From: an uncultured bacterium
GTDB lineage: Bacteria > Krumholzibacteriota > Krumholzibacteriia > LZORAL124-64-63
DNA length: 34,943 nt
Reading direction: 5' to 3'
Assembly: GCA_903859215.1 (NCBI GenBank)
Contig: CAIOLW010000087.1
Coordinates: forward strand, 1-34,943
A program made the translations under genes and the position numbers. The first letter of the stretch is position 1. Every line of letters begins with the position of its first letter. Below the pieces are notes generated by a model, which had not been told where the DNA came from, made no database searches, and saw only the letters and a list, made by a program, of their open reading frames with translations. This document shows positions 17,684 to 34,607 of the stretch, piece after piece.

Positions 17684-20600
17684 CGGGGATCTCCGCCATG
17701 GCCGAGGGTGATGTGCACGCGGTGATGCCCGCCGTCGCGCCGCAGGGGCAGGCGGGCCCGGCCGTCGCAGGGCGCCAGTTCCTGGCCGTCGACCGTCACG
17801 GCGACCACGGCGGCGCTGCAGTCGTCAGGATTCTCCACCGTGATGTCGTAACGCGTGCCGTCGCCCGGCAGGCGCCAGGTCACGGTGAAACGCGGCCAAT
17901 CGTCGGGCACGCACGGCGCGACCACCAGCAGCTGGCCGCCTTCCAGGCGCAGGCCCAGCACCGACTCGAGCGCCACGCGCTGCAGCCAGCCTGACGATCC
18001 CGTGTACCACGTCCAGCCGCCGCGGCCCACGTGCGGCTCGGCGCCGTAGACGTCGGCGGCCACCACGTAGGGCTCGACCAGGTAGCGAGCGACCTGTTCC
18101 GGGGTCGCGGCGTGCAGGATGGGGTTGATCAGGTCCAGCAGCGCGGCCGCGCGGTCGCGGCGGCCCAGTTCGGCCATCGCGCGCACGACCCAGGTGGCCG
18201 CGTGCGTGTACTGGCCGCCGTTCTCGCGGACGCCGGCCACGTAGCCGCGGATGTAGCCGGGATCGCGCGGCGTGTCGACGAAAGGCGGGGTCAGCAGGCG
18301 GACCAGCCGCTCGTCGTCGTTGATGAGCTGCTTCTCGACCTCGTCCATGGCCTGCGCGGCGCGGGCGGGCGGCGCAACCTTCGACAGCACCGACCAGGCC
18401 TGTGCCAGGGCGTCGATGCGGCATTCGCGGTTGTCGCGCGAGCCCAGCGGCGCGCCGTCGTCATAGTAGCCGCGCCGGTACCAGTCGCCGTCCCAGCCGG
18501 TGTCGTTCAGGGCGGCGGCCAGGCGGGCGCGGTGCGCGCGGTAGCGGTCGGCGCGCTCGCGATCGCCGCGCTGCTCGCACAGGGGGGCGAAGGCGTCGAT
18601 GATGCTCACCAGGAAGAAGCCCATCCACGTGCTCTCGCCGCGGCCCTCGCGCCCGACGCGGTTCATGCCGTCGTTCCAGTCGCCGGTGCCGAACAGGGGC
18701 AGGCCGTGGGCGCCCACCTTCAGCGAGCGGTCCAGCGCGCGGCAGCAGTGCTCGAAGACGCTGCCCCGCTGCCCGCTGTCCGTCACGTGGACGAAGACCT
18801 CATCCTCGCCGTCTGGCAGCAGCGGCGCGGTCACCCAGGGCGCGCTCTCGTCGAACACCGCCACATCGCCGGTCTGGGCGGCGTATTCGCAGGCGATGTA
18901 CGGCAGCCACAGCAGGTCGTCGGCGAAGCGTGTGCGGATGCCGGCTTCCAGCGGCGGGTGCCACCAGTGCAGCACGTCGCCCTCGACGAACTGGTGCCCG
19001 GCGTGCAGCACGACCTGCCGGCGGGTCAATTCGGGCCAGTACGGCAGCAGCGACAGCGAATCCTGCAGCTGGTCGCGGAAGCCGAAGGCGCCGCCCGACT
19101 GGTAGAACGCCGAGCGGCCGCGCACGCGGCACGACAGCGTCTGGTAGCCGAGCCAGCCGCCGAGCATCAGGTCGAGCGCCGGCGACGGCGTGGTGACGGA
19201 CAGGGCGCCCAGGCCTTCGCGCCAGAAGTCGCAGGCCTGCTGCCAGGCGGCTGCGCAGGCGGTGGGCGTCGCGAGGGCCGCGGCCACGGCCAGCGCGCCT
19301 GCGTCGCCCCGTTCCTGGCCCAGGAGGAAGGTGACCCCGGCGGTGCCGCCGGCCTCCAGTTCCACCACGGCCTGCAACGCGAAGCAGGCGTCCAGCCCGG
19401 CGCCGGTGCGGCCGTCGAGCGTCGGCGAAGCCAGGGCCAGCGGGTTCGCGGCGTCGCGGTCGGGGCCGAGGAACGTGGCGCGATCGCCGCTCGCGTACAC
19501 GGCCGTCACGTGCGCGTCGGGCACCACGGCGGCGAAGGCCACGTGGTCGGCGAACGCGCCTGCGGTCCGGTTGCGGGCCAGCAGGGCGCCGCTGTTCGCA
19601 TCCCGAGAGGTGACCACGAAACGGCCGCTGCCGGTCGGCTCGTCGCCGAGCACGAGCCGGCTGTAGGCGAACAGCGACAGGCGCCGGGGCGAGCCGCCCG
19701 TGTTGGTCACGCGGACACGGCTCAGGCGCACCGGCCGGTCACGGTCGACGAAGACCGTGGTCTCGATCGCAAGGTTGTCGGCCTGGCGCCGCCAGGTGGT
19801 GTAGCCGAAGCCGTGCCGCACCTCGCAGGCGCCGCCGCCGGGCACCGGGCCGCCCAGGCAGGACAGCCGGGTGCCGCTCGCGTCGTCGCGCAGGTAGAGC
19901 GCCTCGGCGGGCGGGTCCAGGACCGGGTCGTTGCTCCACGGCGTCAGGCGGTTCTCGCGGCTGTTGTCGCACCATGCCGAGCCGAACGCCGTCTCGCTGA
20001 CGATGCAGCCGAGGCGGTCGTTGGCGATCACGTTGGTCCAGGGCAGCGGCGGCAGTGCCAGCCGGCCGGCCCCGTCGGGCGACAGGCGGATGACGTACTC
20101 GCTGCCGTCGGCGCTGAAGCCGCCCAGTCCGTTGGCGAACTGCAGGACCTCGTCGCTGCTCATGACGCCGGCGGCGGCAAGGGGGGGCGGGACCGCGGGC
20201 GCCGGCATAGGCCGGGCGAAGGCAGGCAGCACCAGGGGACCGGCGACCACGAGGCGGGCCACGGTGTCGAGCAGGTCGAGCGTCACGTCGTCGAGTGTTT
20301 CGACATCGAGTCGCGTGACACCGGGCGATGTGAGGCCACCGGTTCCCGCCCGGCCGATCACCGCGAGTTGGATGGGCAGCCCCAGGTCGCGCCACATGGC
20401 GTGCATCGCGAGCAGGCGGCGGGCGGTCGCATTGTCGGTGTGTTCCTCGCGCAGGACGACAAGGGCGTCGTTGCCCGGCAGTCCCAGGCCGGCCAGGGTT
20501 GCCGGGGAACCCGACGCGCGGGCGATGACCTCGGGCGCGGCGCGCAGCGACGGGTCGCCCGCCAGGATGGCGGCGGCCAGGGCGCGCGCTTCGGCGTCGT

Positions 20601-21540
20601 CCTGCGGTTGCCAGTCGCGCCGGGCCAGGTCGGCCGCGGCAACCGACTGTGCGGCGGCGAAGGCGGCCTCGCACGCGTCGTCATCGCCGGCCAGCGCGGC
20701 CAGTTCCAGCGCCGCGCTGCGGTCGGCGCCCACGCCCAGCAGCACGAAGAAGGTCGCCTGGCCGCCGGGGGCCACGTCGGCTTCGCGCCTCAGGCTGAAC
20801 AGCGGGTCCAGCACGTTGCCGGTCGTCCCCGCCAGGAGGGCGCCCGCATCCAGCATGGCGGGCTCGTCGCGGTGGCGACCCCGGCCGCGCCAGCGCAGGC
20901 GGTCGGTTTCCCATTGCAGCGGCCCGACCGCAGTCACGCCTGCGGACGCGGACACCGCAAGCGCGTGCACGAGCACCGGCCAGTTGTCCTGCGGCGAGCG
21001 CGGTCGGCGCCGCGCCACCAGCGCGCCCAGTTCGGGCACGGCTTCGGTCTGCACGAAGAGCTTGGAAAAACCGGGGTGCGAAGCGTGGGCCAGCGGGTCG
21101 TTGAGGACCACTTCGGCCAGCGTCGTGATGTCCACGCGGCGAGGCCCGGTCCCACGGTTGGTGAACGTGACCCGGCGCAGTTCAGCCTGATGGCCCGGCA
21201 CCACGCAGAGGTCGAGCGCGACCCTCAGGTCGCCGCGGTCTTCGCTGTAACAAATGAGGCCGGGCACAGCGAACGGCCCCTCGCCCGCAGGGTCGGCCCC
21301 CACCCGGAACCGGGTCCCGCCGTCGATGCCTCCATATATAAGGAGGCCGTCGCACGTCCCGGATTCCGACCAGGTCCCTCCTGTCAGGACGAGGTTTCCG
21401 GCCCGCGAGCCGCCGGTACCATCTCCTCGCATAAAGACGGTGTAACCGTTTTCACGAGCGGGGGTTGGCGCACCCAGCAAGCTGCCATCAAAAGGGAACC
21501 CACTCCCGGCGGGGGTGGGGTGATATACAGGATTCCGCAA
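17680..21540 (-). CDS. GH94 protein resembling the C-terminal half of cyclic beta-1,2-glucan synthase (1,2-beta-oligoglucan phosphorylase-like)
   Basis: A 1286-aa cytoplasmic protein with no signal peptide or membrane helix. The N-terminal part (about 25-430) matches the first beta-sandwich region of cyclic glucan synthase (RVTFTNRGTGPRRVDITTLA, HPGFSKLFVQTE, ALVARRRPRSP). The second part (about 465-1286) is a complete GH94 unit: NGLGGFSADGSEYVI, ETAFGSAWCDNSRENRLTPW, RDQLQDSL, and GDWNDGM at 953-959 carrying the general-acid Asp. The GT84 and transmembrane half of the synthase is absent, as in 1,2-beta-oligoglucan phosphorylase (EC 2.4.1.333). That enzyme releases glucose 1-phosphate from beta-1,2-glucooligosaccharides. 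The TTG at 21540 has GGGAGG nine bases upstream. It is followed by GH1 with a four-base overlap and is divergent from LacI. The linkage preference is inferred. Confidence 0.85.
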   Translation of the reverse strand: MRNPVYHPTPAGSGFPFDGSLLGAPTPARENGYTVFMRGDGTGGSRAGNLVLTGGTWSESGTCDGLLIYGGIDGGTRFRVGADPAGEGPFAVPGLICYSEDRGDLRVALDLCVVPGHQAELRRVTFTNRGTGPRRVDITTLAEVVLNDPLAHASHPGFSKLFVQTEAVPELGALVARRRPRSPQDNWPVLVHALAVSASAGVTAVGPLQWETDRLRWRGRGRHRDEPAMLDAGALLAGTTGNVLDPLFSLRREADVAPGGQATFFVLLGVGADRSAALELAALAGDDDACEAAFAAAQSVAAADLARRDWQPQDDAEARALAAAILAGDPSLRAAPEVIARASGSPATLAGLGLPGNDALVVLREEHTDNATARRLLAMHAMWRDLGLPIQLAVIGRAGTGGLTSPGVTRLDVETLDDVTLDLLDTVARLVVAGPLVLPAFARPMPAPAVPPPLAAAGVMSSDEVLQFANGLGGFSADGSEYVIRLSPDGAGRLALPPLPWTNVIANDRLGCIVSETAFGSAWCDNSRENRLTPWSNDPVLDPPAEALYLRDDASGTRLSCLGGPVPGGGACEVRHGFGYTTWRRQADNLAIETTVFVDRDRPVRLSRVRVTNTGGSPRRLSLFAYSRLVLGDEPTGSGRFVVTSRDANSGALLARNRTAGAFADHVAFAAVVPDAHVTAVYASGDRATFLGPDRDAANPLALASPTLDGRTGAGLDACFALQAVVELEAGGTAGVTFLLGQERGDAGALAVAAALATPTACAAAWQQACDFWREGLGALSVTTPSPALDLMLGGWLGYQTLSCRVRGRSAFYQSGGAFGFRDQLQDSLSLLPYWPELTRRQVVLHAGHQFVEGDVLHWWHPPLEAGIRTRFADDLLWLPYIACEYAAQTGDVAVFDESAPWVTAPLLPDGEDEVFVHVTDSGQRGSVFEHCCRALDRSLKVGAHGLPLFGTGDWNDGMNRVGREGRGESTWMGFFLVSIIDAFAPLCEQRGDRERADRYRAHRARLAAALNDTGWDGDWYRRGYYDDGAPLGSRDNRECRIDALAQAWSVLSKVAPPARAAQAMDEVEKQLINDDERLVRLLTPPFVDTPRDPGYIRGYVAGVRENGGQYTHAATWVVRAMAELGRRDRAAALLDLINPILHAATPEQVARYLVEPYVVAADVYGAEPHVGRGGWTWYTGSSGWLQRVALESVLGLRLEGGQLLVVAPCVPDDWPRFTVTWRLPGDGTRYDITVENPDDCSAAVVAVTVDGQELAPCDGRARLPLRRDGGHHRVHITLGHGGDPR
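21441..21454. promoter_or_regulatory. LacI-type operator O2 inside the start of the GH94 gene
   Basis: TGTAACCGTTTTCA fits the LacI/GalR pattern TGNAANCGNTTNCA exactly. It differs from O1 at only two of 14 positions and lies within codons 29-34 of the GH94 gene. An internal operator is known from gal and lac. The bases also encode a segment (ENGYTV) that looks conserved, so coincidence is possible. Confidence 0.55.
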
Positions 21541-22941: not shown

Positions 22942-24831
22942 ATGAAGAAATGGATCACGGCCCTGCTGGTAGGCGGGGTGGTTGCGGTGGCGGCGCTGCC
23001 TGCCCTGGCGCAGGCACCGCGGGCGGACGCAATCTGGGCGCGGGCGGCGCAGGCCAACATCACGCTCGACGGCGTCCTGAACGAGGCTGACTGGGCGGGC
23101 GCCCAGTCCTGGACCATCGACTACGGTGTGGATGCGGGCATCCCCGGCAGCGGTTGGAAGACCGAGGCCGGCTGGGATCCCCCGGCCAACCCGACGCACG
23201 CGGTGGTCAAGTTCCTGACCCGCGGCAACCAGCTCTACATGGGCGTCGAGGTCGCCGACAACTCGGTGGGCGGCAGCGCGTCGTTCAACCGCTTCGACGG
23301 CTTCCTGATGGGCCTGAAGGACAAGTCGTCGGGCGGCCAGCCGAAGCCCGTGCTGGAGTACCTGTACTCCTGGTGGCATGACGAGCATCTCGACCCGCAG
23401 CCGGCCGGGCAGCTGCCCGGGTTCATCGGCGCCTGGGCCGAGCTGCCCCACGGTTCGCCGCGGACCGCGGCGCAGATCGCGGCCTGGGATGCGGCCACGG
23501 TCGTTCACGGCACGTCCAACAGCGACACGACGCCCGACACGGGCTACACGGTCGAGATGCGCTTCGACCTGTCGGTCCTGGGCTACGACGTGACCCAGCC
23601 CGCCGGCGATACGGTCGAGTTCAACCTCTCGATCTACGACTGCGACGGCTTCTGGCCGATCAGTCCCGTCACTTTCAGCACGAACCGCGTGTGGTGGCAG
23701 GGACCCTGGGGCAACGACACCTGGTACAACGAAGTGCGTGTCATGGGACGCCCCGACGTGACGACGGTGTCCGGTCCGGCGCCGGCCATCGCCCCGGACC
23801 TGACCATCCCCACCATCGACGTCCTGCCGACGATGGACGGCGCGCTGACCGAGCCCGTGTGGTCGAGCGGCACCCCGTACGCCCTGAACATCCGGTGGGA
23901 CGATGCCGCCCTGCGGGCGACGTATCCCGGTGTCGGGCCGCTGCGCGCGGGCCAGTACCAGCCGAACGTGAACGGCGGCGCCGCGTTCGTGATCGACCCC
24001 GCCGACGCGACGATCAAGATGTACCACCGCGGTTCGAAGCTGTACCTGGGCTTCGACGTGCGTGACGCAGTCGTCCAGTACCATCCGGACATCAACCGCT
24101 GGGACGGCGCCATCGTCACGATCAACGATCGTGTGTTGCGCGGCCCCGACCGCACGCTGCTGGGCAAGCGCCTGTCGTTCCAGATCGCGCAGAACGGCAC
24201 CGCGCTTGCGCAGGACGACCTGCTGAGCATGGTGACCGCCGGCACCGCCCGCGTGGCGGCGCACATGAACGCCGGCACGACGGTCGACACGCTGGGCACG
24301 CAGATGGACAACGGGTACCAGGTCGAGATGGAACTGGACCTGACCGCGCTCGGCTATCCCGCCAACCTGGGCGACGGCGCCCTGTTCATGGGCATCAACC
24401 TGTTCGACGGCGACAGTTTCCAGGTCGCGTCCGACAGCTACGGTACCCGGACGTGGTGGCAGCGCGAGTGGCAGGGCACCTGCTGCCCGGCGGCGGTCTA
24501 CCTGCAGCCTTCGTACATCAGCGGCGTCGGGCCGTGGACCCCGGGCGGCGACTATGCGCGCCTGCTCGGGAGCCTGAACCCGTCACCGCGGCCGGAAGTG
24601 TCGTTCGCGATCCCGGATCGCAACCTCGTGAAGCTCGAGGTCTACGATGTGCGCGGCCGCCTGGTCGAGCGCCGTGACCTGGGCGACATGGGTGAGGGCG
24701 ACGCGAGCGTGCCCCTGTTCGCGAACGGGGAAGCGGCCGCGGGCGTGTACCTGTACCGCGTGCAGTTCATCAACCCGTCGACCGGCCAGGTGCGCGGCAC
24801 GTTGACCGGCAAGACGCTGTTGATCAAGTAG
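22942..24831 (+). CDS. Secreted protein with two CBM9-like sugar-binding domains and a C-terminal sorting domain
   Basis: A 629-aa exported protein. A signal peptide ends near residue 24 (PALAQA). Two CBM9/DOMON-like beta-sandwich domains follow at about 35-275 and 295-540. Each begins with an ITLDGVLNEADW- or LPTMDGALTEPVW-type opening and ends with a Trp-rich strand (NRVWWQGPW; TRTWWQREW). Residues about 545-629 form a FlgD-Ig/T9SS type A-like domain (KLEVYDVRGRLVERRDLG, AGVYLYRVQF) ending GKTLLIK. CBM9 modules bind reducing ends or sugars. Here they probably capture glycan at the cell surface or present it to the TonB receptor encoded next. GGAGGAGG precedes the ATG. No catalytic domain is seen. 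It lies 114 bases after lacI with no terminator, so partial co-transcription is possible. Confidence 0.85.
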   Translation: MKKWITALLVGGVVAVAALPALAQAPRADAIWARAAQANITLDGVLNEADWAGAQSWTIDYGVDAGIPGSGWKTEAGWDPPANPTHAVVKFLTRGNQLYMGVEVADNSVGGSASFNRFDGFLMGLKDKSSGGQPKPVLEYLYSWWHDEHLDPQPAGQLPGFIGAWAELPHGSPRTAAQIAAWDAATVVHGTSNSDTTPDTGYTVEMRFDLSVLGYDVTQPAGDTVEFNLSIYDCDGFWPISPVTFSTNRVWWQGPWGNDTWYNEVRVMGRPDVTTVSGPAPAIAPDLTIPTIDVLPTMDGALTEPVWSSGTPYALNIRWDDAALRATYPGVGPLRAGQYQPNVNGGAAFVIDPADATIKMYHRGSKLYLGFDVRDAVVQYHPDINRWDGAIVTINDRVLRGPDRTLLGKRLSFQIAQNGTALAQDDLLSMVTAGTARVAAHMNAGTTVDTLGTQMDNGYQVEMELDLTALGYPANLGDGALFMGINLFDGDSFQVASDSYGTRTWWQREWQGTCCPAAVYLQPSYISGVGPWTPGGDYARLLGSLNPSPRPEVSFAIPDRNLVKLEVYDVRGRLVERRDLGDMGEGDASVPLFANGEAAAGVYLYRVQFINPSTGQVRGTLTGKTLLIK

Positions 24832-24878
24832 GGACGACGAGTCTGACGAAGATCGACGAATAGAGGATCGGCGGCCGA

Positions 24879-24914
24879 CCGCCGCGCCGGGCCCCGGGGG
24901 CTCCGGCGCGGCGG
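24879..24914. repeat. Very strong 12-bp inverted repeat between the CBM9 and TonB-receptor genes
   Basis: CCGCCGCGCCGG pairs perfectly with CCGGCGCGGCGG around a 12-base GC-rich loop that can pair further. There is no T run, so it is more likely a processing, stability or attenuation element adjusting expression of the receptor relative to the binding protein than a simple terminator. Confidence 0.7.
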
Positions 24915-24955
24915 CGACACCGCCCGGGGACGGATCGACCGGAGGCGGATCACAG

Positions 24956-27595
24956 GTGTTGCAGCCCCTTCACAAGTCGCGTGCGCTGGCGTTGCTGCTG
25001 GGCAGCCTGCTGCTGCTTGCCGCATTGCCCCTGCAGGCCGGCACCACCGGTACGCTGGCCGGCCGCGTGATCGACGCGGGCGGGAAACCCGTCGTCGCCG
25101 CCACCGTCCTGGTGACGGGAACGCGCCTGGGCGCGTATACCGATGCCGAGGGCAAGTTCCTGATCCTGAACGTGGCTCCCGGCACGTACGTGGTGAAGGC
25201 CAGTCGGCTCGGTTTCAATGCCGTGACCATGAGCGAGGTCGTCGTGTCGGCCGACAACACGATGCGCCTGGACTTCAAGATGGGCGACACCAACCTCAAG
25301 ACCGAGGAAGTGGTGATCGTCGCCGAGCGGCCGCCCGTGGACCTGAAGGTCACCAGTTCGCAGGCCACCATGACGACGCAGGAGATCGAAGAGCTGCCGG
25401 TCCAGAGCCTGGACGATGTCGTGAACCTGCAGGCGGGCGTGGTCGACGGCCACTTCCGCGGCGGCCGCAGCGGCGAGGTGCAGTACCAGGTCGACGGCGT
25501 CAGCATCAACAACGCTTTCGACAACAAATCGAGCCTGAATGTCGACCGTTCGCTGCTGCAGGAAGTGCAGGTCATCAGCGGCACGTTCGACGCCGAGTAC
25601 GGCCAGGCCATGTCGGGTGTGGTCAACGCCGTGCTGAAGCAGGGCGGCGAGGAATACAAGACCGAGGGCGAGATCTACCTGGGCGGCTTCCGGTTTTCGG
25701 ATGGCGGGAACCGGCGCAGGGTCGATGCCACGAGCCACCTGGCCGGGACGAACAACTTCCAGGCGACGCTGAGCGGCCCGCTGCCGTCGGACAAGACGAA
25801 CTTCCTGGTCAGCGGCCGCTACTACCATTGGGAGGACTACGTCCGGGGCCTGCGGGTCTACAATCCGTCGGACGGTTTCCCGGGCCACCCCGACACCCCG
25901 TTCATCGCGAGCGGCGACCGCGCGCAGATGCCCCTCGGCTACACGGACGAATGGTCCGGCGTGGCCAAGCTGACCAGCAATGCCCTGGCCAACACGAAAA
26001 TCAGCTACCAGATGCTGGTGAACCGTCGTGAGAGCCGGCCGACCATCTGGCAGTTCCGCTACCTGCCTGACGCGGTGTCCATCCAGCGCACGCTGTCGGT
26101 CGCCCAGGGATTCGACGTGACCCACACGCTGGGGCCCTCGACGTTCCTCGACTTCAGTGCGCGGCGGAATTCGTTCGATTACACCGATCATCTCTACGCT
26201 GATCCGTTCGACCCCCGCTACGACAGCGTGCTGCAGCTTCGTTCCGATGTGAACGGTGGCTTCGCCTACCAGGGCGTCCAGACGAACAACTACATCCAGA
26301 AGACGGTTTCCTACATCCTGAAGGGCGCGCTCGTCAGCCAGCTCGACAGCCAGAACCAGGCCAAGACGGGATTCGAGCTGAGCCTGCCCACGGTCGAGTT
26401 CGGAACGCCCATGCACCTGGTCTACGTCAACAGCGCGCTGCTGCGGAAGGTGAACGAGGAGGGCTATCCCGGGCCGATGAAGCGGTACCCGGTCATGGGA
26501 GCCTTCTATGCCCAGGATCAGCTGGACAAGGGTGACCTGATCGTGCGCTACGGCGGCCGCCTGGACTACTTCGACGCCCGCTCGACCATTCCCGGCGATC
26601 TTGCCAACCCGGCCAATGCCATTTCCGGCGTGCCGACGGCCGACCCGGTGGCAACGACGGTGAAGGCGACGTTCTCGCCGCGCGTGGGTGTGGCTTATCC
26701 GATCGAGGACAAGGCCGCGATCCATTTCGCCTACGGGCACTTTCGCCAGTTCCCCTCGGTCAGCACGATGTTCTCCAATTCGGACTACTCGGTCCTGGCG
26801 AACCTCCAGGCAGGCGCGGCGGACTACGGCGTGTTGGGCAATCCGGACGTGAAGCCGGAATCGACGGTGCAGTACGAGGTCGGCTACAAGCAGGTCGTCA
26901 ACCCGGACTTCGGCTTCGACCTGACGGTCTACTACAAGGACATCCGCGACCTGCTGGGCGTGGAATTCATCGACACCTATACCGGGGCCACCTATTCCCG
27001 GTTGACCAATGTCGACCACGGCAGCGCGCTGGGCCTCACGCTGGCGCTGGATCACCGGCAGGTCGGTCCATTGTCCATGTCGCTGGACTACACCTGGCAG
27101 CAGGCGATGGGCAATGCGAGCGACCCGAGCGAGACGGCGACGCGCGCGGCGGCCGGCGAGGACCCGCGGCCACGGTTGGTGCCGTTCAACTGGGACCAGC
27201 GTCACACGGTCAACCTGACGGCCGCCCTGAACACGCCCGGTGCCTGGACGTTCGCGGCAGTGGCCAAGGTGGCCAGCGGACAGCCGTACACGCCCGAGAC
27301 CGAAGAGGCCTTCGGCTTCGGCGCCGCCACCAATTCGGGCCGCAAGCCGGCCGGCCTGCTGGTCGACGTGCGCGCGGAGAAGAAGTTCGGCAAGAACGAG
27401 GCGGGCAGTGTGTTCCTGCGCGTGTTCAACCTTTTCGACACGCGGTATTTCAATGGAGCGGTATTCCCGACCACGGGCAGCCCCTACTACAGCATTCCCA
27501 GCCCGAACGCACAGTTGGCGCTAGCCGATCCCACGCGCCTTTACCCGCCGCGCCGCCTGGAAATGGGCATGCGCCTGACCTGGGGGGGCAAGTGA
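24956..27595 (+). CDS. TonB-dependent outer-membrane receptor
   Basis: An 879-aa outer-membrane receptor for energy-dependent import. A signal peptide ends near residue 28. A CarboxypepD_reg-like domain spans about 30-110 (GTLAGRVIDAGGKPVVAATV, GKFLILNVAPGTYVVKASRLG), as in SusC-like proteins. A TonB-box-like stretch (EEVVIVAERPP) precedes the plug (about 125-235; IEELPVQSLDDVVNLQAGVV, YQVDGVSINNAF, SGVVNAVLKQGG). The remaining residues form the barrel (YGGRLDYFD, PRVGVAYPI, YEVGYKQVVN, FDTRYFNGA) and end RLTWGGK. The GTG at 24956 has GGAGG ten bases upstream. There is no SusD gene next to it; instead a large secreted protein and a PorV-like protein follow. The substrate is inferred to be the oligosaccharide made by the GH144 enzyme. 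Confidence 0.93.
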   Translation: MLQPLHKSRALALLLGSLLLLAALPLQAGTTGTLAGRVIDAGGKPVVAATVLVTGTRLGAYTDAEGKFLILNVAPGTYVVKASRLGFNAVTMSEVVVSADNTMRLDFKMGDTNLKTEEVVIVAERPPVDLKVTSSQATMTTQEIEELPVQSLDDVVNLQAGVVDGHFRGGRSGEVQYQVDGVSINNAFDNKSSLNVDRSLLQEVQVISGTFDAEYGQAMSGVVNAVLKQGGEEYKTEGEIYLGGFRFSDGGNRRRVDATSHLAGTNNFQATLSGPLPSDKTNFLVSGRYYHWEDYVRGLRVYNPSDGFPGHPDTPFIASGDRAQMPLGYTDEWSGVAKLTSNALANTKISYQMLVNRRESRPTIWQFRYLPDAVSIQRTLSVAQGFDVTHTLGPSTFLDFSARRNSFDYTDHLYADPFDPRYDSVLQLRSDVNGGFAYQGVQTNNYIQKTVSYILKGALVSQLDSQNQAKTGFELSLPTVEFGTPMHLVYVNSALLRKVNEEGYPGPMKRYPVMGAFYAQDQLDKGDLIVRYGGRLDYFDARSTIPGDLANPANAISGVPTADPVATTVKATFSPRVGVAYPIEDKAAIHFAYGHFRQFPSVSTMFSNSDYSVLANLQAGAADYGVLGNPDVKPESTVQYEVGYKQVVNPDFGFDLTVYYKDIRDLLGVEFIDTYTGATYSRLTNVDHGSALGLTLALDHRQVGPLSMSLDYTWQQAMGNASDPSETATRAAAGEDPRPRLVPFNWDQRHTVNLTAALNTPGAWTFAAVAKVASGQPYTPETEEAFGFGAATNSGRKPAGLLVDVRAEKKFGKNEAGSVFLRVFNLFDTRYFNGAVFPTTGSPYYSIPSPNAQLALADPTRLYPPRRLEMGMRLTWGGK

Positions 27596-30500
27596 TGGAT
27601 CACATGCGGAACGAACGCGGAGGATGGTGCGCGGTGGCCGTTGGCAGGCGGACGAGGAACGTGTGGGCGACACGGGCGGCGGGATGCGCGGCGGCGGCGA
27701 TGGTGCTGGCGCTGGCGACGGGTCGGGGCGGGGCCGAAGTGGTGACGCCGGTGCCCCAGGAGCAGCGCGGCCGGTTCGACGCCGAGCGCGCCGGCCAGCA
27801 CGACGCCAACAACCTGCGCACGATCTTCTGGAATTTCGGCATGGTCGGCGACTATCCGCGCGACCCGGCCAACGTCGACCTGAGCGTCTTCCACTCGGCC
27901 GAGGCCCCCAAGGGCAGCGGCATGAACTACAGCGACGGCGTGACACCCTTCGTGCTGGCGAAGATCCAGACGACCGGCGGCTCGGACGTGTACCTGATGG
28001 AGACGGGGTTCCGCGAGCGCCAGGGTGTCAGCCCCTACCACAACCGGGACATGCGCTTCGAGCCGCGCCCGGGCTACATGCAGCCGGACCCGAACCTGAA
28101 TCCGGGGCGTTCACCCGCGCTGAGCAACGACCCGCGCACGTGGCCTTCGCTGTGGCCCGACCGCCTCGACGACCCGGATGACCCGGGTTGGGGCGGCAGC
28201 TGGAACGGCTATTTCGGCAAGCAGGTCGCGGCCGACCAGGAAAGCTACTCGGTGATGGACGACGACTACTACGACGGCTGGAACTATTACCCGGACAGTC
28301 GCGATTCGACGCGCCATGGCCTGGGCCTTCGCGTCGAGGTGCGCGGCTTCCAGTGGGCCAACCCGCAGGCGCGCAACGTCATCTTCTGGCATTACGACAT
28401 CACCAACGAGGGCACGACCGACTACAACGACAACATCATCTTCGGGCTCTACATGGACTCGGGCGTGGGCGGTTCGGCGCTGTCCTGCGACGGCATCTAC
28501 GAGTCGGACGACGACAACGCCTTCTTCCAGCAGACGTTCCACAACCAGCGCATCAACCTGGTCTACACCTGGGACAACAAGGGCCACGGCCGCGACCTGG
28601 CCGGCTCGTGCTCGCGCACCGGCTACCTGGGCTACGCCTACATGGAGACGCCCGGCAACCCGACCAACGGGCTGGACGACGACCAGGACGGCATCACCGA
28701 TGAGCGGCGCGACGGCGGCCCCGGTACGAAACTGGTCGGCGAATCCGAGATCCTGGCCTATGTGGGCGCGCACTACGACCGCACGCGCTTCGAGGCCGAG
28801 TATGGGCCGGTGGAACTGCGCCCGGCCTTCCGCGCGGGCGAGTGGTGGACCGGCGACGAGGATATGGACTGGGTCGCGGCCAATCACGACCTGGGCGCCG
28901 ACGGCATCGCGTCCGATGTCCACACGCCGCCCGACGCGGGCGAGGGTGACGGCATGCCGACCGCGGGCGAGCCCAACTTCGACGGCACGGACCTGAACGA
29001 GTCCGACCAGATCGGGCTGACCGGCTTCAAGCTGAACCGGATCCGCCCCGGCCAGGGCAATCCCGACCAGACCATCGACGGCGTGGTGTTCTACACCGAT
29101 TCCCAGAACTGGCCGCAGCGGCTGTACGAGAAGTTCAGTTCGACGAACGCGGCCGAGCGCTTCGACCCGCCGCTGGCGTCGAACTACAACATCGGGTTCC
29201 TGTTCGCGTCGGGACCGTTCCGCCTGGCGGCGGGCCAGACGGAGCGGTTCAGCCTGGCCATGGCATACGCCGCCGACCTGGATGAACTGGCGCGCAACAC
29301 GCAGACGGTGCAGCAGATCTACAACGCGAACTACCGTTTCGCGACGCCGCCCAAGCAACCGACGGCGACTGCCGAAACCGGCGATGGATTCGTGCGGATC
29401 TCGTGGGACGATGTGGCCGAGCGCGGCGCCGACCCCGTGACGGGCGAGGAGGACTTCGAGGGGTACCGCATCTACCGCTCGACGGACCCGGAATTCCGCG
29501 ATCCGCAGGTGATCTGGACGGGCACCGGCTCCGGCCCCATCGGCAACGGCAAGCCCATCGCCCAGTTCGACCTGGACAACGGGTTCTCCGGGTTCTCGGA
29601 CCTGGCTGTCGAGGGCGTGCAGTACTTCCTGGGCACCAACACCGGCCTGACGCACACCTGGACCGACCACAGCGCCGTGAACGGCCAGGCGTACTACTAC
29701 GCCGTGACGGCCTACGACCACGGCTCGGCCGCCTTCAATTTCTACCCGTCCGAGAACGCGATCGCCCCGTCACGCACGCCGCGCGGCGGCCTGATCCTGC
29801 CGTCGAACGTCGTGGCGGTCCGGCCGGAGCCGCGCGTGCTCGGGTTCGTGGCAGCGCAGGCGGATACCGCGGTGGCCATGGCGGGGCGCGGTTCGGGCTC
29901 GGTGGCGCTGCAGGTGGTCAACTCCGGGCTCGTCCCGGACGGGCACAAGTTCCGGATCAACTTCACCACGCCGAATGCGGACAGCGTGGCTGCCACGCGG
30001 TATTCGCTGACGGATGTCACCGACAACGTCGTCAGTTTCACCAGCGGCAGCGACCTGCGCGGCCAGGGCATCGGGCCGGTCGGCCTGGGCCTGTTGCCGG
30101 TGATCGCGACCGGCAGCGCGGTGGCGATCGATTCGGCCGGCACCGGCTTCATTTCCGGCAGCAGTACGGACGCCCACATGACGGTCGCCTACGAGCACAG
30201 CGTGCTGTCGGCCAACCGCCTGCGCCCGGGCTATCCGGACGACATCACCGTGTTCTTCTACGACAGCGTCATGGACACCTCGCTCGTGGCGCCGTTCTAC
30301 CCGGCCACGCCGGCGAAATTCGAGGTCATCGCGCACGGCCCGACGGGCGACCGCAAGCTGGACTTCATCTTCCGCGACCGGGACGCCAACCAGACGATCA
30401 GCCGCGCGGACGAGGTCCTGGACATCGTGACCTACGTGGCCGGCGATGCGGCGCCCAAGGTGACGTGGCGGCTGAAGGTCACGGCGACGACGGCGCGGCC

Positions 30501-30924
30501 GCCGCACGCGGGCGACGCCTGGCACCTGAAGCTGGTCCGGCCGTTCGGCGTCGACGACGTCTACGAGTTCAACACGACCGCAGAGTCCGTGACGGCAGCC
30601 GCGGGCGGCCAGAAGCTGGCGCCCTACGTGGTGCCGAACCCGTACCTCGGGTCGGCGAGCTTCGAGCCGGAACGGTTCGCGGTGTCCGGGCGCGGCGAGC
30701 GGCGGATCGAGTTCCGCGGCCTGCCCGCGAACTGCGTCATCCGCATCTACAACGTGATCGGCGAGCTTGTGCAGACGCTGCGTCACGACGGTTCGAACGA
30801 CGGCATGGTGCCCTGGGACCTGCGAACGAAGGACGAGCTCGACGTGGCGCCGGGCCTCTACATCTTCTACGTGGACGGCGGTCCGGCCGGGACGGCCACC
30901 GGCAAGTTCGCGATCGTCAAGTGA
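27595..30924 (+). CDS. Very large secreted protein with fibronectin-like and C-terminal FlgD-Ig/sorting domains
   Basis: An 1109-aa protein. Its ATG overlaps the receptor stop by one base (TGATG), so the two are coupled. After a long basic N-terminus there is a hydrophobic export segment (about 28-45). Residues about 60-570 are of unknown fold and rich in Asp, Tyr and Trp, with acidic loops of calcium-binding appearance (DDDQDGITDE). A fibronectin type III-like domain lies at about 580-720 (GFVRISWDDV, YRIYRSTDPEF, AYYYAVTAYDHG). A second beta-rich part contains a dockerin-like DRDANQTISRADEV. The C-terminal domain (about 1005-1109) has VVPNPYLGS, IRIYNVIGELVQTL and PGLYIFYV and ends GKFAIVK. 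By position and coupling it may do the job SusD does in Bacteroidetes loci, namely capturing substrate for the receptor. The function is not known. Confidence 0.8.
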   Translation: MDHMRNERGGWCAVAVGRRTRNVWATRAAGCAAAAMVLALATGRGGAEVVTPVPQEQRGRFDAERAGQHDANNLRTIFWNFGMVGDYPRDPANVDLSVFHSAEAPKGSGMNYSDGVTPFVLAKIQTTGGSDVYLMETGFRERQGVSPYHNRDMRFEPRPGYMQPDPNLNPGRSPALSNDPRTWPSLWPDRLDDPDDPGWGGSWNGYFGKQVAADQESYSVMDDDYYDGWNYYPDSRDSTRHGLGLRVEVRGFQWANPQARNVIFWHYDITNEGTTDYNDNIIFGLYMDSGVGGSALSCDGIYESDDDNAFFQQTFHNQRINLVYTWDNKGHGRDLAGSCSRTGYLGYAYMETPGNPTNGLDDDQDGITDERRDGGPGTKLVGESEILAYVGAHYDRTRFEAEYGPVELRPAFRAGEWWTGDEDMDWVAANHDLGADGIASDVHTPPDAGEGDGMPTAGEPNFDGTDLNESDQIGLTGFKLNRIRPGQGNPDQTIDGVVFYTDSQNWPQRLYEKFSSTNAAERFDPPLASNYNIGFLFASGPFRLAAGQTERFSLAMAYAADLDELARNTQTVQQIYNANYRFATPPKQPTATAETGDGFVRISWDDVAERGADPVTGEEDFEGYRIYRSTDPEFRDPQVIWTGTGSGPIGNGKPIAQFDLDNGFSGFSDLAVEGVQYFLGTNTGLTHTWTDHSAVNGQAYYYAVTAYDHGSAAFNFYPSENAIAPSRTPRGGLILPSNVVAVRPEPRVLGFVAAQADTAVAMAGRGSGSVALQVVNSGLVPDGHKFRINFTTPNADSVAATRYSLTDVTDNVVSFTSGSDLRGQGIGPVGLGLLPVIATGSAVAIDSAGTGFISGSSTDAHMTVAYEHSVLSANRLRPGYPDDITVFFYDSVMDTSLVAPFYPATPAKFEVIAHGPTGDRKLDFIFRDRDANQTISRADEVLDIVTYVAGDAAPKVTWRLKVTATTARPPHAGDAWHLKLVRPFGVDDVYEFNTTAESVTAAAGGQKLAPYVVPNPYLGSASFEPERFAVSGRGERRIEFRGLPANCVIRIYNVIGELVQTLRHDGSNDGMVPWDLRTKDELDVAPGLYIFYVDGGPAGTATGKFAIVK

Positions 30925-30938
30925 GCGCGGGGAGCGAC

Positions 30939-31958
30939 ATGAGGAAAGCGGGACTCGTACTGATGATCGTGGGCGCCTGCGCCTTGGCGGCAGCCGTGCC
31001 GGCCAGTGCGCAGACGAAGGTGGGTTCGACGCTCGGCACGTTCCTGAGGATCGAGCCGGGCGCGCGCGGCGCCGCCCTGGGGAACGCCGGTTCGGCGCTG
31101 CCCGGCGGCATCGAGGCGGTCTACTACAACGCGGGCGCGCTCGGGCTCCTGGACCAGGCCGCCGTGCTGTATTCGCACGCCGACTGGTTCGTCGGCATCA
31201 GCCATGACTACATCGGCATCGCGCTGCCGGTCAAGGGACTCGGCAACGTGTTCACCAGCGTGACGTCCCTGAATTCGGGTCCCATCGAGGTGCGGACGGT
31301 GGAGAATCCACTGGGCACCGGCGTCGAATACACGGTGAGCAACGTCGCCCTGGGCCTCGGTTACGGGCGCCGGATCACCGAGCGTTTCGCCGCCGGCCTC
31401 CAGGCGAACTACGTGACCGAGAAGATCTGGAACACATCGGAACGGACGATGACGTTCAACCTGGGTTCGCTCTACCGGTTGAACAAACAGGGTGCGCTGC
31501 TGGGCTTCAGCCTGGCCAACGTGGGCACGCAGGCCCGGTTCACCGGCCGTGACCTGAACTTCACCTACGATGCGAACCCCGACCTGTACGGCGACAACAG
31601 CGGGCTGCCGGGCGAGCAATCGACCGATTCGTTCCCGCTGCCCGGCCTGTTCCGTCTCGGGCTGAGCTGGCCGCTGACCCTGGGCGAGCACAGCCACATG
31701 CTGCTGCTGGCCGAGGGGCTGCACCCCAACGACAACAGCGAGAGCGTGAACCTGGGCGCCGAGTGGAACCTGCGCGAACTTCTCGCGCTGCGCATCGGCT
31801 ACCAGACGTTGTTCCAGACCGACAGCCAGCTGGGCCTGACGTTCGGCTTCGGCGTGCGGGGCAAGCTGGGCGGCAACCAATACCGCTTCGATTACGCGTG
31901 GGCAGGCCACGACTACCTTGACGATACGCATCGCTTGACCATGGTGGTCGAGTTCTAG
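30939..31958 (+). CDS. PorV/PorQ-family outer-membrane protein
   Basis: A 339-aa predicted beta-barrel. The signal peptide ends near residue 25 (VPASA). The mature protein begins with the family signature LGTFLRIEPGARGAALGNAG, followed by AVYYNAGALGLL, alternating barrel strands (NVALGLGYGRRI, AAGLQANYVTEK) and the terminal strand HRLTMVVEF, which ends in Phe as barrel-assembly substrates do. PorV in type IX secretion shuttles cargo carrying a C-terminal domain to the attachment complex; other family members are of unknown role. It lies 14 bases after the large protein and 51 before the GH144 gene, both with sorting domains, so it may handle these products specifically. No other secretion genes are in the window. 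Confidence 0.88.
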   Translation: MRKAGLVLMIVGACALAAAVPASAQTKVGSTLGTFLRIEPGARGAALGNAGSALPGGIEAVYYNAGALGLLDQAAVLYSHADWFVGISHDYIGIALPVKGLGNVFTSVTSLNSGPIEVRTVENPLGTGVEYTVSNVALGLGYGRRITERFAAGLQANYVTEKIWNTSERTMTFNLGSLYRLNKQGALLGFSLANVGTQARFTGRDLNFTYDANPDLYGDNSGLPGEQSTDSFPLPGLFRLGLSWPLTLGEHSHMLLLAEGLHPNDNSESVNLGAEWNLRELLALRIGYQTLFQTDSQLGLTFGFGVRGKLGGNQYRFDYAWAGHDYLDDTHRLTMVVEF

Positions 31959-32009
31959 GACGGGCATCAGCCGGCGCGGCACGGGCGGCGGCGGCGAAGG
32001 GGAAACGGC

Positions 32010-33707
32010 ATGAAGACGGGGCGCGGGATCCGGGCCGGTTGGCGATCGCCGATGGCCGGGCTGTGTGTGGGCCTGCTTCTGGCCGTCAGCGGCGCTGCGG
32101 CAGCAACGGTCGCGACGGCTGCGACGGTTGCGACGGATGCGCCGCGCGGAACGCGTGACGATTACCCGGTCATGACGCTGGGCGGCAAGTCGCTCACCAA
32201 CGAGGCGCTCCTGGACAGCCTGCAGCGGCGCAGCTTCAAGTACTTCTGGTACGAGGCCAATCCCGTCAACGGGCTGATCCGCGACCGCAGCCAGGCCGGT
32301 TCCCCGTGCAGCATCGCCGCGCAGGGCTTCGGCATCTCCGCGATCTGCATCGCCATCGACCACGGTTGGGTCACGCGCGAAGAGGGTCGCGCGCGCATCA
32401 TGCTCGGCATGCAGACCCTGTGGAACGGGGCGCAGGGCAACACGGTCTACAACACGAACGGCTACAAGGGCCTGTTCTACCACTTCCTGGACATCAACTC
32501 GGGCAACCGGACCTGGACCTGCGAACTGTCCACCATCGACACCGCCCTCCTGATGGCCGGCGTGCTGGACGCCAAGCAGTACTTCAACACCACTGACGCC
32601 GGCGACGTCGCCGTCCGCGACCTGGCCGACTCCATGTACCGGCGTGTGGACTGGGACTTCATGCGGAACGGCGGCGCCGGCATCCGCATGGGCTGGAACC
32701 CGGAGACCGGATTCGCGACCTTCGGCAGCTGGGTCGGCTACAACGAGGCCATGATCCTGTACATCCTGGCCCTGGGCTCGCCGACGCACCCGGTGCCCGC
32801 GACCTGCTGGAACTACTGGACCACCGGCTACGGCTGGGCCACCTACTACGGCCAGAGCTACGTCGCCTTCGCGCCGCTGTTCGGCCATCAGTACTCGCAC
32901 TGCTGGATCGACTTCCGCGGCATCCCCGACACCTACATGACGGCGCGCGGGATCGACTATTTCGAGAACTCGCGGCGGGCGACATACGCGGCGCGCTCCT
33001 ACTGCATCCAGAACCCGTACGGGCGCGCCGCCTACGGCGCGAACCTGTGGGGCCTGACGGCGTCGGACGACCCGAACGGGTACGCGGCGCACGGCGCCCC
33101 GCCATCGCAGAGCGACAACGGCACCATCTCGCCGACGGCGGCGGCCAGCTCGATCGCCTTCGCGCCCGAGATCGTGCTGCCCTGCCTGCAGAACATGTAC
33201 GACACGTGGGGCGTCGGCCTGTGGGGCAAGTACGGCTTCAAGGACGCCTTCAACCCGACCGTGTACTGGTGGGGCCCGGACTGGCTGGGCATCGACCAGG
33301 GCCCGATCGTCATCATGATCGAGAACTACCTGAACGGCTCGGTCTGGCACCGGTACATGATGAACGCCGATATCGTCAACGGCCTGAAGCGCGCCGGCTT
33401 CCAGAACGTGACGCCGACCCCGGAACAGTCCTACAAACCGGTATCGATGATAGAGTTGCAGCAAAATGCCCCCAACCCGTTCCACGGCTCCACCACGATT
33501 TCGTTCCGTGTGCGCGAGTCGGGACCGGTGATCCTGAAGATGTACGATCTGCGCGGGCGGCAGGTGCGCCGTGTCGACGCCGAGGCGTCGGCCGACGACC
33601 TGCAGCAGATCACGCTGGATGGCGGGGGCCTGCCCAGCGGTGTTTATGCCTATTCACTGGAAATCCACGGCCACAGGGAGTGGAAACGTTGTATCATCGT
33701 GAAGTAG
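32010..33707 (+). CDS. Secreted GH144-type (glycoamylase-fold) endo-beta-1,2-glucanase candidate
   Basis: A 565-aa exported enzyme. The signal peptide spans about residues 1-35. The (alpha/alpha)6 catalytic domain (about 60-455, PF10091) has the family landmarks LQRRSFKYFWYEANPVNGL, GFGISAICIAIDHGWVTREE, GYNE with Glu246, ANLWGLTASDDPNGYAAHG, ISPTAAASSIAFAPE, and IDQGPIVIMIENY with Asp429. At the site where I recall VETAFL in characterised GH144 members, this protein has TIDTALL (Asp177), with Glu172 just before. The C-terminal domain (about 480-565) has QNAPNPFHGSTTISF, MYDLRGRQV and SGVYAYSL and ends CIIVK, a T9SS type A-like tag. GH144 enzymes cleave linear beta-1,2-glucan into short oligosaccharides. 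Related PF10091 proteins may act on other glucans, so the linkage is inferred, supported by the GH94 partner. Confidence 0.82.
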   Translation: MKTGRGIRAGWRSPMAGLCVGLLLAVSGAAAATVATAATVATDAPRGTRDDYPVMTLGGKSLTNEALLDSLQRRSFKYFWYEANPVNGLIRDRSQAGSPCSIAAQGFGISAICIAIDHGWVTREEGRARIMLGMQTLWNGAQGNTVYNTNGYKGLFYHFLDINSGNRTWTCELSTIDTALLMAGVLDAKQYFNTTDAGDVAVRDLADSMYRRVDWDFMRNGGAGIRMGWNPETGFATFGSWVGYNEAMILYILALGSPTHPVPATCWNYWTTGYGWATYYGQSYVAFAPLFGHQYSHCWIDFRGIPDTYMTARGIDYFENSRRATYAARSYCIQNPYGRAAYGANLWGLTASDDPNGYAAHGAPPSQSDNGTISPTAAASSIAFAPEIVLPCLQNMYDTWGVGLWGKYGFKDAFNPTVYWWGPDWLGIDQGPIVIMIENYLNGSVWHRYMMNADIVNGLKRAGFQNVTPTPEQSYKPVSMIELQQNAPNPFHGSTTISFRVRESGPVILKMYDLRGRQVRRVDAEASADDLQQITLDGGGLPSGVYAYSLEIHGHREWKRCIIVK

Positions 33708-33815: not shown

Positions 33816-34607
33816 ATGACCAAGCTCAGTAAGTTCATCATCGTGGCCGCGCTTCTGGCGCTGGCCTGCTCGGCGTACGCCACGAGCGTGCCCGGCTCCG
33901 CCTCGTTCATCACCCGCATCTTCAACGACGATCCGTTTTCGACGCTGGTGACGACGAACAACTTCCCTTCGCTGGTCGAGATTTCCGACACCGCCGTGCC
34001 GCCCGCTGGTTGGGCCAACCTGCACGCCTGGCGCCTGTCGAATGACGGCATCAGCGCCGCCGATTTCATGAACGTCGACGGCTTCGCGATCAGCGCCGAC
34101 GTCCGCATCTCCGGCACCGCGAACGGCGAAGCCGGCCTGCAGCTTGCTCCCTGGTGGAGCGAGGCCGACGGCCGCTTCAACATCCGCACCCCGGACGGCG
34201 AAGTCGCCGTGTTCGGCGGCCGGCTGCCCTTCTACTCGTTCACGGGCACGAACGGTAAGTCCTACGTCGCGGGCACCTGGGTGCGCCTGACGATCATCTA
34301 CCGCACGAACGTGGACATGAACGAGACGCATCCCGCCACCGTCGAGTACATCTACAACGACGGCAGCCCGGTCAGCAGCGGCCAGCTGCCCTTCGACATG
34401 GGCAACCCGGGCGAAGATCCCCCGCACGGCCTGTGGGGCATCCTGAACCCGGCGCATGTCGGCGGCTACATGCAGTTCAACAACATGAGCGGCCAGAGCG
34501 GCCTGACGATGGTCGGTTCGTGGGCCAACATCCAGGTCGAGGATCTCGGCACGGTCGTCCCGTCCGAGCCGACCAGCTGGGGCGATGTGAAGTCGCTGTT
34601 CCGCTAG
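33816..34607 (+). CDS. Secreted jelly-roll (lectin-like) protein
   Basis: A 263-aa exported protein with a signal peptide ending near residue 22 (SAYA). The body is all beta, with strands such as GFAISADVRISG, GEAGLQLAPWWSEADGRFNI, EVAVFGGRLPFYSF and YVAGTWVRLTIIYR, and a late WANIQVEDLG. This suggests a concanavalin/laminin-G-like sandwich, and similar extracellular proteins of unknown function exist from memory. No catalytic motif was recognised. The C-terminus is TSWGDVKSLFR, unlike the IK/VK-ended sorting domains of its neighbours. It lies 108 bases after GH144, has AAGGAG before its ATG and ends the rightward gene set ahead of a strong terminator. A role in glycan binding is inferred from fold and location only. 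Confidence 0.7.
   Translation: MTKLSKFIIVAALLALACSAYATSVPGSASFITRIFNDDPFSTLVTTNNFPSLVEISDTAVPPAGWANLHAWRLSNDGISAADFMNVDGFAISADVRISGTANGEAGLQLAPWWSEADGRFNIRTPDGEVAVFGGRLPFYSFTGTNGKSYVAGTWVRLTIIYRTNVDMNETHPATVEYIYNDGSPVSSGQLPFDMGNPGEDPPHGLWGILNPAHVGGYMQFNNMSGQSGLTMVGSWANIQVEDLGTVVPSEPTSWGDVKSLFR

What the first reader, a model, noticed from the sequence alone, without database searches (positions are those of the whole stretch)
24550..33707. Three co-encoded secreted proteins share a C-terminal sorting domain and a KxxI(I/V)K-like end, with a PorV protein among them
The CBM9 protein ends GKTLLIK, the large protein GKFAIVK and the GH144 enzyme CIIVK. Each end follows a FlgD-Ig/T9SS type A-like domain. 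A PorV/PorQ homologue lies between two of these genes. A dedicated PorV shuttle for one locus's cargo would be unusual, since PorV is usually described as a general T9SS component.
Basis: partly seen in the sequence, partly recalled or inferred. Interest (0 to 1): 0.6.

Follow-up and report, generated by a model that had tools for sequence, protein, structure and literature searches.

The report
Sugar-uptake locus with its own PorV
In this uncultured bacterium, and in relatives from several phyla, a gene set for eating a rare sugar polymer carries a transporter, a large surface protein with a secretion tag, and a private copy of a secretion-system membrane barrel, which suggests a surface uptake complex built in a way that has not been described.

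Summary
The CBM9 protein, the large protein ("BIG", 27700-30924) and the GH144 enzyme end as described, and a PorV/PorQ-family barrel (30939-31958) lies between the last two. However, the three tails are not one kind. CBM9 and GH144 carry the general T9SS tag, of which the genome has about 130. BIG carries a different, PorZ-like C-terminal domain.

The genome has a T9SS core: SprA, PorU, and a separate PorV beside PorU. In 80 BIG loci from several FCB phyla, the order TBDT-BIG-PorV is kept wherever the contig allows. It usually sits with CBM9, LacI, GH144 and GH94 genes, i.e. a predicted beta-1,2-glucan utilisation locus. BIG-linked PorVs form one clade, apart from PorU-linked PorV. The same genome has two more loci with a TonB transporter, a BIG-type protein and a PorV, and no SusD was detected.

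Best reading: BIG is a T9SS-secreted surface partner of the TonB transporter. Its CTD is probably kept on the co-encoded barrel (like PorZ on PorQ), replacing SusD. The pairing is well supported by comparison; CTD retention and glycan capture are inferred. I found no description of it in the open-licence papers searched.

The parts
16337..17683 (-). GH1 beta-glucosidase
   Evidence: PF00232 535 bits; TIGR03356 595 bits over cut-off
17680..21540 (-). GH94 phosphorylase-like protein (start uncertain, perhaps 21267)
   Evidence: PF17167 374 bits and PF06165 345 bits
21760..22827 (+). LacI-family regulator
   Evidence: PF00356 and PF13377; syntenic in relatives
22942..24831 (+). CBM9-like secreted protein with general T9SS CTD (about 24550-24831), ends GKTLLIK
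   Evidence: PF06452 30.8 bits; CTD below Pfam/NCBIfam cut-offs but 41 bits on a general CTD profile; 61 of 61 homologues tagged
24956..27595 (+). TonB-dependent transporter with CarboxypepD_reg N-terminal domain
   Evidence: PF00593, PF07715, PF13620 over cut-off; upstream of BIG in 63 of 63 loci with room
27700..30924 (+). BIG: large secreted protein of unknown fold class, 1074 aa (start may lie up to 27592); PorZ-like CTD about 30622-30921, ends GKFAIVK
   Evidence: no Pfam family; PorZ CTD match in 14 of 17 orthologues; 471 relatives; AF2 mean pLDDT 86.7
30939..31958 (+). PorV/PorQ-family 14-strand outer-membrane barrel (NF033709)
   Evidence: 152 bits against 90; AF2 pLDDT 88.7, 14 strands; best PDB matches are PorV 8gl6_F and 6h3i_F
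32010..33707 (+). GH144-type endo-beta-1,2-glucanase candidate with general T9SS CTD (about 33471-33698), ends CIIVK
   Evidence: PF10091 275 bits; PF18962 30.1 bits over cut-off
33816..34607 (+). P0006: secreted protein of unknown function, syntenic in most close relatives; ends WGDVKSLFR
   Evidence: no family; synteny

Best explanation
The stretch is the outer-membrane part of a predicted beta-1,2-glucan utilisation locus of a Krumholzibacteriota bacterium. GH144 and the CBM9 protein are secreted by the genome's general T9SS and act on glucan at the surface. The TonB-dependent transporter imports the oligosaccharides. BIG is a T9SS-secreted surface protein that partners the transporter, in the role that SusD has in Bacteroidota. 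The co-encoded PorV/PorQ-type barrel is BIG's own barrel. It most likely binds BIG's PorZ-like CTD, accepts BIG from the SprA translocon and then keeps it at the surface beside the transporter, as PorQ keeps PorZ and PorP/SprF keep type B cargo. Shown here: the T9SS core, the conserved TBDT-BIG-PorV unit, the separate CTD class, the separate PorV clade, and absence of a SusD hit. Inferred: physical binding, CTD retention, glycan binding by BIG, and the substrate.
For: PorV lies directly 3' of BIG in all 79 relatives whose contig reaches that far: 76 by the automatic test, 3 missed by its distance/ORF filter; median gap 18 bases. TBDT is upstream in 63 of 63. Two loci carry a second, divergent copy and keep the unit: TBDT'-BIG'-PorV' at 33-38% identity in L086, BIG'-PorV' in L098. 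BIG-linked PorVs from several phyla form one clade (SH-aLRT 100); TBDT-linked PorVs group apart from PorU-linked and other PorVs (98), and neighbourhood labels need 7 changes where 6 is the minimum. Two further loci in the genome have a TBDT, a BIG-type tagged protein and a PorV. BIG-class CTDs match the genome's PorZ-like protein. Of 7 TBDT-linked PorVs scored, 6 score PorQ above PorV and 1 is a near tie; all 6 PorU-linked ones score PorV above PorQ. Extracellular loops of this PorV are more conserved than its strands, 0.71 against 0.62, permutation p 0.005. SusD gives no hit while the control rings. Papers: PorZ's CTD is retained on PorQ and cognate PorV-like barrels may protect CTDs (PMC10202324); PorP-like barrels hold their type B cargo (PMC9143113).
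Against: No binding or localisation data exist, and no complex model could be made with these tools. Conserved gene order shows functional linkage, not contact. BIG's N-terminal part has no recognised glycan-binding domain and its fold matches in the PDB are weak. The PorZ-like protein itself has no PorV beside it (L033). The equivalog cut-offs for PorV and PorQ are both missed by far. CTD retention cannot be read from sequence; the determinants of PorU cleavage are unknown (PMC11285876).
Confidence: 0.55

Rival explanations
1. Dedicated shuttle: the locus PorV is a true PorV that collects the locus's T9SS cargo (BIG, perhaps CBM9 and GH144) from SprA and delivers it to PorU for cleavage, with no lasting anchor role.
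For: PorV family fold with PDB PorV as best match; tagged genes on both sides of it; general model of PorV as shuttle (PMC10202324).
Against: CBM9 and GH144 carry the CTD type of about 130 other proteins, far more than the 11 PorV-family genes. The barrel is not in the PorU-linked PorV clade. PorV equivalog score is 46 of the 250 needed.
Confidence: 0.2
2. The barrel is a FadL-like channel or a structural partner of the TonB transporter and does not handle T9SS cargo; its place beside BIG is because all three serve glucan uptake.
For: FadL-family transporters are the next PDB matches. In two class members the barrel lies beside a TBDT with no tagged gene detected next to it (L173, L190). PorV and TBDT distances correlate best of the three pairs, r 0.83.
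Against: PorV-family genes in this class lie beside CTD-bearing genes far more often than chance, also where no TBDT is present. BIG is the immediate neighbour of this barrel across phyla.
Confidence: 0.2
3. Hitch-hiking: the PorV gene travels with a mobile or co-inherited sugar locus but has only the general PorV role.
For: The locus is patchy: full-length BIG in about 19 of 80 genomes of the phylum.
Against: The gene is never lost from the locus over several phyla and forms its own clade; divergent second units keep it too. The genome already has a PorU-linked PorV.
Confidence: 0.05

Closest known systems
PorZ-PorQ pair of the T9SS attachment complex (Porphyromonas gingivalis)
   Same: A surface protein with an uncleaved CTD held by a PorV-family barrel. 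BIG's CTD falls with the PorZ-like CTD class and the barrel scores PorQ above PorV.
   Different: PorZ serves A-LPS delivery and is part of the machinery. BIG is a different protein, sits in a sugar locus beside a TBDT, and CTD retention is untested.
Type B CTD cargo with co-encoded PorP/SprF barrel
   Same: One barrel per cargo, genes clustered, proposed surface anchoring (PMC9143113).
   Different: The barrel is PorV/PorQ-family, not PorP (TIGR03519 not detected in the genome, where the control was uninformative); the CTD is not shown to be type B.
SusC-SusD polysaccharide utilisation loci of Bacteroidota
   Same: TonB-dependent transporter with a surface partner, co-encoded glycanases and regulator.
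   Different: No SusD hit in the genome; the partner is a T9SS CTD protein with its own barrel; the transporter is far below the SusC cut-off (65 of 368 bits).
Beta-1,2-glucan gene cluster of Ignavibacterium album (IALB_1177-1187; PMC8861115)
   Same: GH144 and GH94 genes with a putative TonB-dependent transporter.
   Different: That paper treats the enzymes. A term search of its main text found one mention of TonB and none of the Por secretion system; I did not see its supplementary gene map, so whether it draws BIG and PorV is not known.

Membership tests
PorV/PorQ family (NF033709) | family score over curated cut-off (90 bits) | tested here: met
   152 bits; 70 of 70 homologues match the model
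PorV/PorQ family (NF033709) | 14-strand FadL-type barrel with N-terminal plug | tested here: met
   AF2 model pLDDT 88.7, 14 strands; PDB best matches PorV 8gl6_F and 6h3i_F, TMq 0.69 and 0.67
PorV equivalog (NF033710) | score over 250 bits; partner of PorU | tested here: not met
   46 bits. The PorU-linked paralogue on contig C166 also misses it at 110 bits, so the cut-off is strict outside Bacteroidota
PorQ equivalog (NF033711) | score over 220 bits | tested here: not met
   60.8 bits
T9SS type A CTD (TIGR04183/PF18962), GH144 | tag model over cut-off at the C-terminus | tested here: met
   PF18962 30.1 against 27; TIGR04183 25.9 bits in the genome scan, though 21.9 of 23 on the protein alone
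T9SS type A CTD, CBM9 protein | tag model over cut-off at the C-terminus | tested here: inconclusive
   14.7 of 23 bits; 4 of 15 orthologues match TIGR04183 at E 0.01; 41 bits on own-genome CTD profile
T9SS type A CTD, BIG | tag model over cut-off at the C-terminus | tested here: not met
   no TIGR04183/PF18962 hit for BIG; 1 of 17 orthologues at E 0.0096; 14 of 17 match the PorZ CTD instead
PorZ-PorQ-like pair | CTD of the PorZ class on the surface protein | tested here: met
PorZ-PorQ-like pair | CTD not cleaved and bound to the cognate barrel | not testable with these tools
   needs protein chemistry or a complex model
SusCD-type PUL | SusC (TIGR04056) over cut-off and a SusD next to it | tested here: not met
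   65 of 368 bits; no PF07980 hit in the genome, control rings in Bacteroides
Beta-1,2-glucan utilisation locus | GH144 and GH94 enzymes in one regulated cluster | tested here: met
   PF10091 275 bits, PF17167 374 bits, LacI; conserved in relatives
Beta-1,2-glucan utilisation locus | activity on beta-1,2-glucan | not testable with these tools
   GH144/GH94 specificity assumed from family

The most novel reading that the evidence does not exclude
A SusD-free class of TonB-dependent nutrient importer, widespread in FCB phyla. Its surface partner is a T9SS-secreted protein with a retained PorZ-like CTD, anchored by a dedicated PorV/PorQ-type barrel encoded in the same operon. Each such unit has its own barrel.
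Probability: 0.4. Interest if true: 0.8.

Novelty: new variant of a known kind. Interest (0 to 1): 0.62.

Why it matters
PorV is usually described as one general T9SS component. Here PorV-family barrels are several per genome and most are tied to particular tagged proteins, so T9SS may sort cargo through cognate barrels more widely than the PorP and PorQ cases show. If the TBDT-BIG-PorV unit is a physical complex, it answers how FCB bacteria without SusD equip their TonB transporters with a surface partner, and it gives a clean test of whether PorV-type barrels can be permanent anchors.

Tried and rejected
PorP/SprF search: no hit, but the control did not ring either. GldM search: no hit, and the control hits are below cut-off in unrelated species, so absence is not shown. 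BIG against PDB sequences: nothing. BIG fold search gave only weak, partial matches, among them PorZ 5m11 and the GH94 laminaribiose phosphorylase 6ggy/6gh3, too weak to name a fold. A first neighbour survey with a gene caller trained on this GC-rich window failed on other genomes and was replaced by six-frame ORFs. Idea that all three tails are one tag class: rejected. Idea that the PorV is a lone oddity: rejected. Mirror-tree correlations (r 0.68-0.83) do not separate partner choice from shared ancestry and are not used as evidence for binding. Literature searches on PorV with SusD, PUL, TonB or Ignavibacteria found no description of the unit, in open-licence papers only.
Full report
WHAT IS THERE. 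The window is a whole contig (C87) of a 4.33 Mb, 391-contig genome. The locus on the + strand is LacI (21760-22827), CBM9 protein (22942-24831), TonB-dependent transporter (24956-27595), a large protein here called BIG (27700-30924), a PorV/PorQ-family barrel (30939-31958), a GH144-type enzyme (32010-33707) and P0006 (33816-34607). A GH94 and a GH1 gene run the other way. GH144 and GH94 together point to beta-1,2-glucan.

CHECK OF THE TAILS. By curated models only GH144 passes a tag cut-off. The genome has 130 TIGR04183 matches at E 1e-3. I took 40 of these, built a general CTD profile, and built a second profile from BIG orthologues. GH144 (92.5 against 0), CBM9 (41.0 against 0) and PorU (64.5 against 21.9) fit the general class. 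BIG fits its own class, and so do three proteins that were not used to build it: the tagged protein next to the C46 PorV (60.8 against 36.6), that near the C3 PorV (65.9 against 27.6), and a beta-propeller protein on C165 (51.5 against 28.6). The last one matches the PorZ CTD with 51 bits. The 40 general ones and GH144 were training data for the general profile, as BIG was for the other, so only the remaining comparisons are fair tests. An alignment shows extra residues (roughly 8-20) after the PNP motif in the BIG class. BIG orthologues match the PorZ CTD in 14 of 17 cases.

THE T9SS CORE. SprA/Sov: 488 bits on C241. PorU: 472 bits on C166, with a PorV gene directly after it. GldM was not found, but that search is not informative.

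PORV PARALOGUES. Eleven PorV-family matches exist in the genome; the last of them is a FadL-type protein. Neighbours: PorU (C166); TBDT and BIG-type protein (C46, C3, and the window); other tagged or CTD-like proteins (C219, C51, C106, C274); none seen (C263, C123, C142). In 54 PorV loci of 8 less fragmented genomes of the class, 40 lie directly beside a CTD-bearing gene (PorU included), 3 more share the cluster, 2 lie beside a TBDT only, and 9 have neither (my count of its rows). With 130 tagged genes in roughly 3,600, about 7% would be expected; a rough binomial with 43 of 54 gives p about 1e-39. The gene number is my estimate from genome size. The weaker CTD calls (19-35 bits) are less certain; reversed sequences gave no hit.

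THE UNIT IS OLD. A scan of 84,980 species genomes with the BIG alignment found 471 relatives; the best 80 (51-83% identity) come from records named Krumholzibacteriota, Eisenbacteria, KSB1, Calditrichota, Ignavibacteria, Rhodothermaceae, Chlorobiales and others (some MAG names are probably wrong). Where the contig reaches far enough PorV follows BIG in 79 of 79. The automatic test gave 76; in L057 and L059 the PorV frame is open upstream through BIG, and in L112 the PorV ends 1,540 bases after BIG, just past the limit. TBDT precedes in 63 of 63. Typical gaps are 18 and 39 bases. Within the family and class the whole locus is collinear. L086 has a second TBDT-BIG-PorV unit at 33-38% identity to the first, and L098 a second BIG-PorV pair. 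In the phylum the locus is patchy: about 19 of 80 genomes hold full-length BIG.

TREE. In a tree of 83 PorV-family proteins, BIG-linked ones are one clade (SH-aLRT 100), PorU-linked ones are one clade (94), and TBDT-linked ones as a whole are split from the rest (98); one unlinked long-branch row falls among the former. Labels of neighbourhood need 7 changes where 6 is the least possible. The tree was a quick search without bootstrap, and its root is only the midpoint.

STRUCTURE. The PorV model has 14 strands with an N-terminal plug, best PDB matches PorV. Its presumed extracellular loops are more conserved than its strands (0.71 against 0.62, p 0.005), which is unusual for outer-membrane barrels (own knowledge) and suggests a conserved outside partner; the loop assignment is mine from topology. 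BIG is predicted as a chain of beta-rich domains with a C-terminal beta sandwich; no clear fold match.

MECHANISM. Inference: BIG is secreted by the T9SS, its CTD stays on the locus barrel, and BIG partners the TBDT in glucan capture. Support comes from the PorZ-like CTD, the PorQ-leaning barrel scores, the strict pairing, and the absence of a SusD hit. The literature gives two precedents: PorZ on PorQ (PMC10202324) and PorP-like barrels with type B cargo (PMC9143113). GH144 and CBM9 are ordinary cargo in this view. Of 86 GH144 homologue frames scored in the loci, 45 carry the general tag; the untagged rest include second GH144 genes in the same loci, perhaps periplasmic, and frames cut by contig ends.

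NOVELTY. The enzymes of such a cluster in Ignavibacterium album are known (PMC8861115). I found no account of the TBDT-BIG-PorV unit in the open-licence papers searched; subscription journals and preprints were not searchable.

Noticed in passing
window 33816-34607; L034-L051 homologues; L046:5752-6411; L048:13786-14670: P0006 and some other secreted neighbours end in a short motif (S/T)(W/F)xxVKxL(F/Y)R. 19 of 308 called proteins fit against 0.16 expected from shuffled tails, though most hits are homologues of one another. It may be a second, short C-terminal signal.
   Followed up: partly
L027 (contig C51): 6508-16454; similar order in L208: A FlgD_ig-tagged large protein and a PorV-like protein are followed by a TPR protein and small genes that look like ExbB, two ExbD and TonB (small genes named by eye). 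Could be another energy source for T9SS where GldM is not detected; not tested.
   Followed up: no
L033 (contig C165): 5840-8170: PorZ-like protein: beta-propeller (Ycf48/BNR matches) plus PorZ-type CTD (51 bits), with no PorV gene beside it.
   Followed up: partly
L026 and class homologues (L179, L187, L196, L202, L209, L215, L220, L225): A PorV2-like subfamily (clade support 100) with no CTD gene beside it; in L026 it lies near a LysM/transglycosylase gene. Role unknown.
   Followed up: no
L056, L057, L059 record titles: MAG records named Gemmatimonas, Latescibacterota and Fibrobacter have contigs of the same length as genomes of the window's own family (G016, G031, G008); the public names look wrong.
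   Followed up: no
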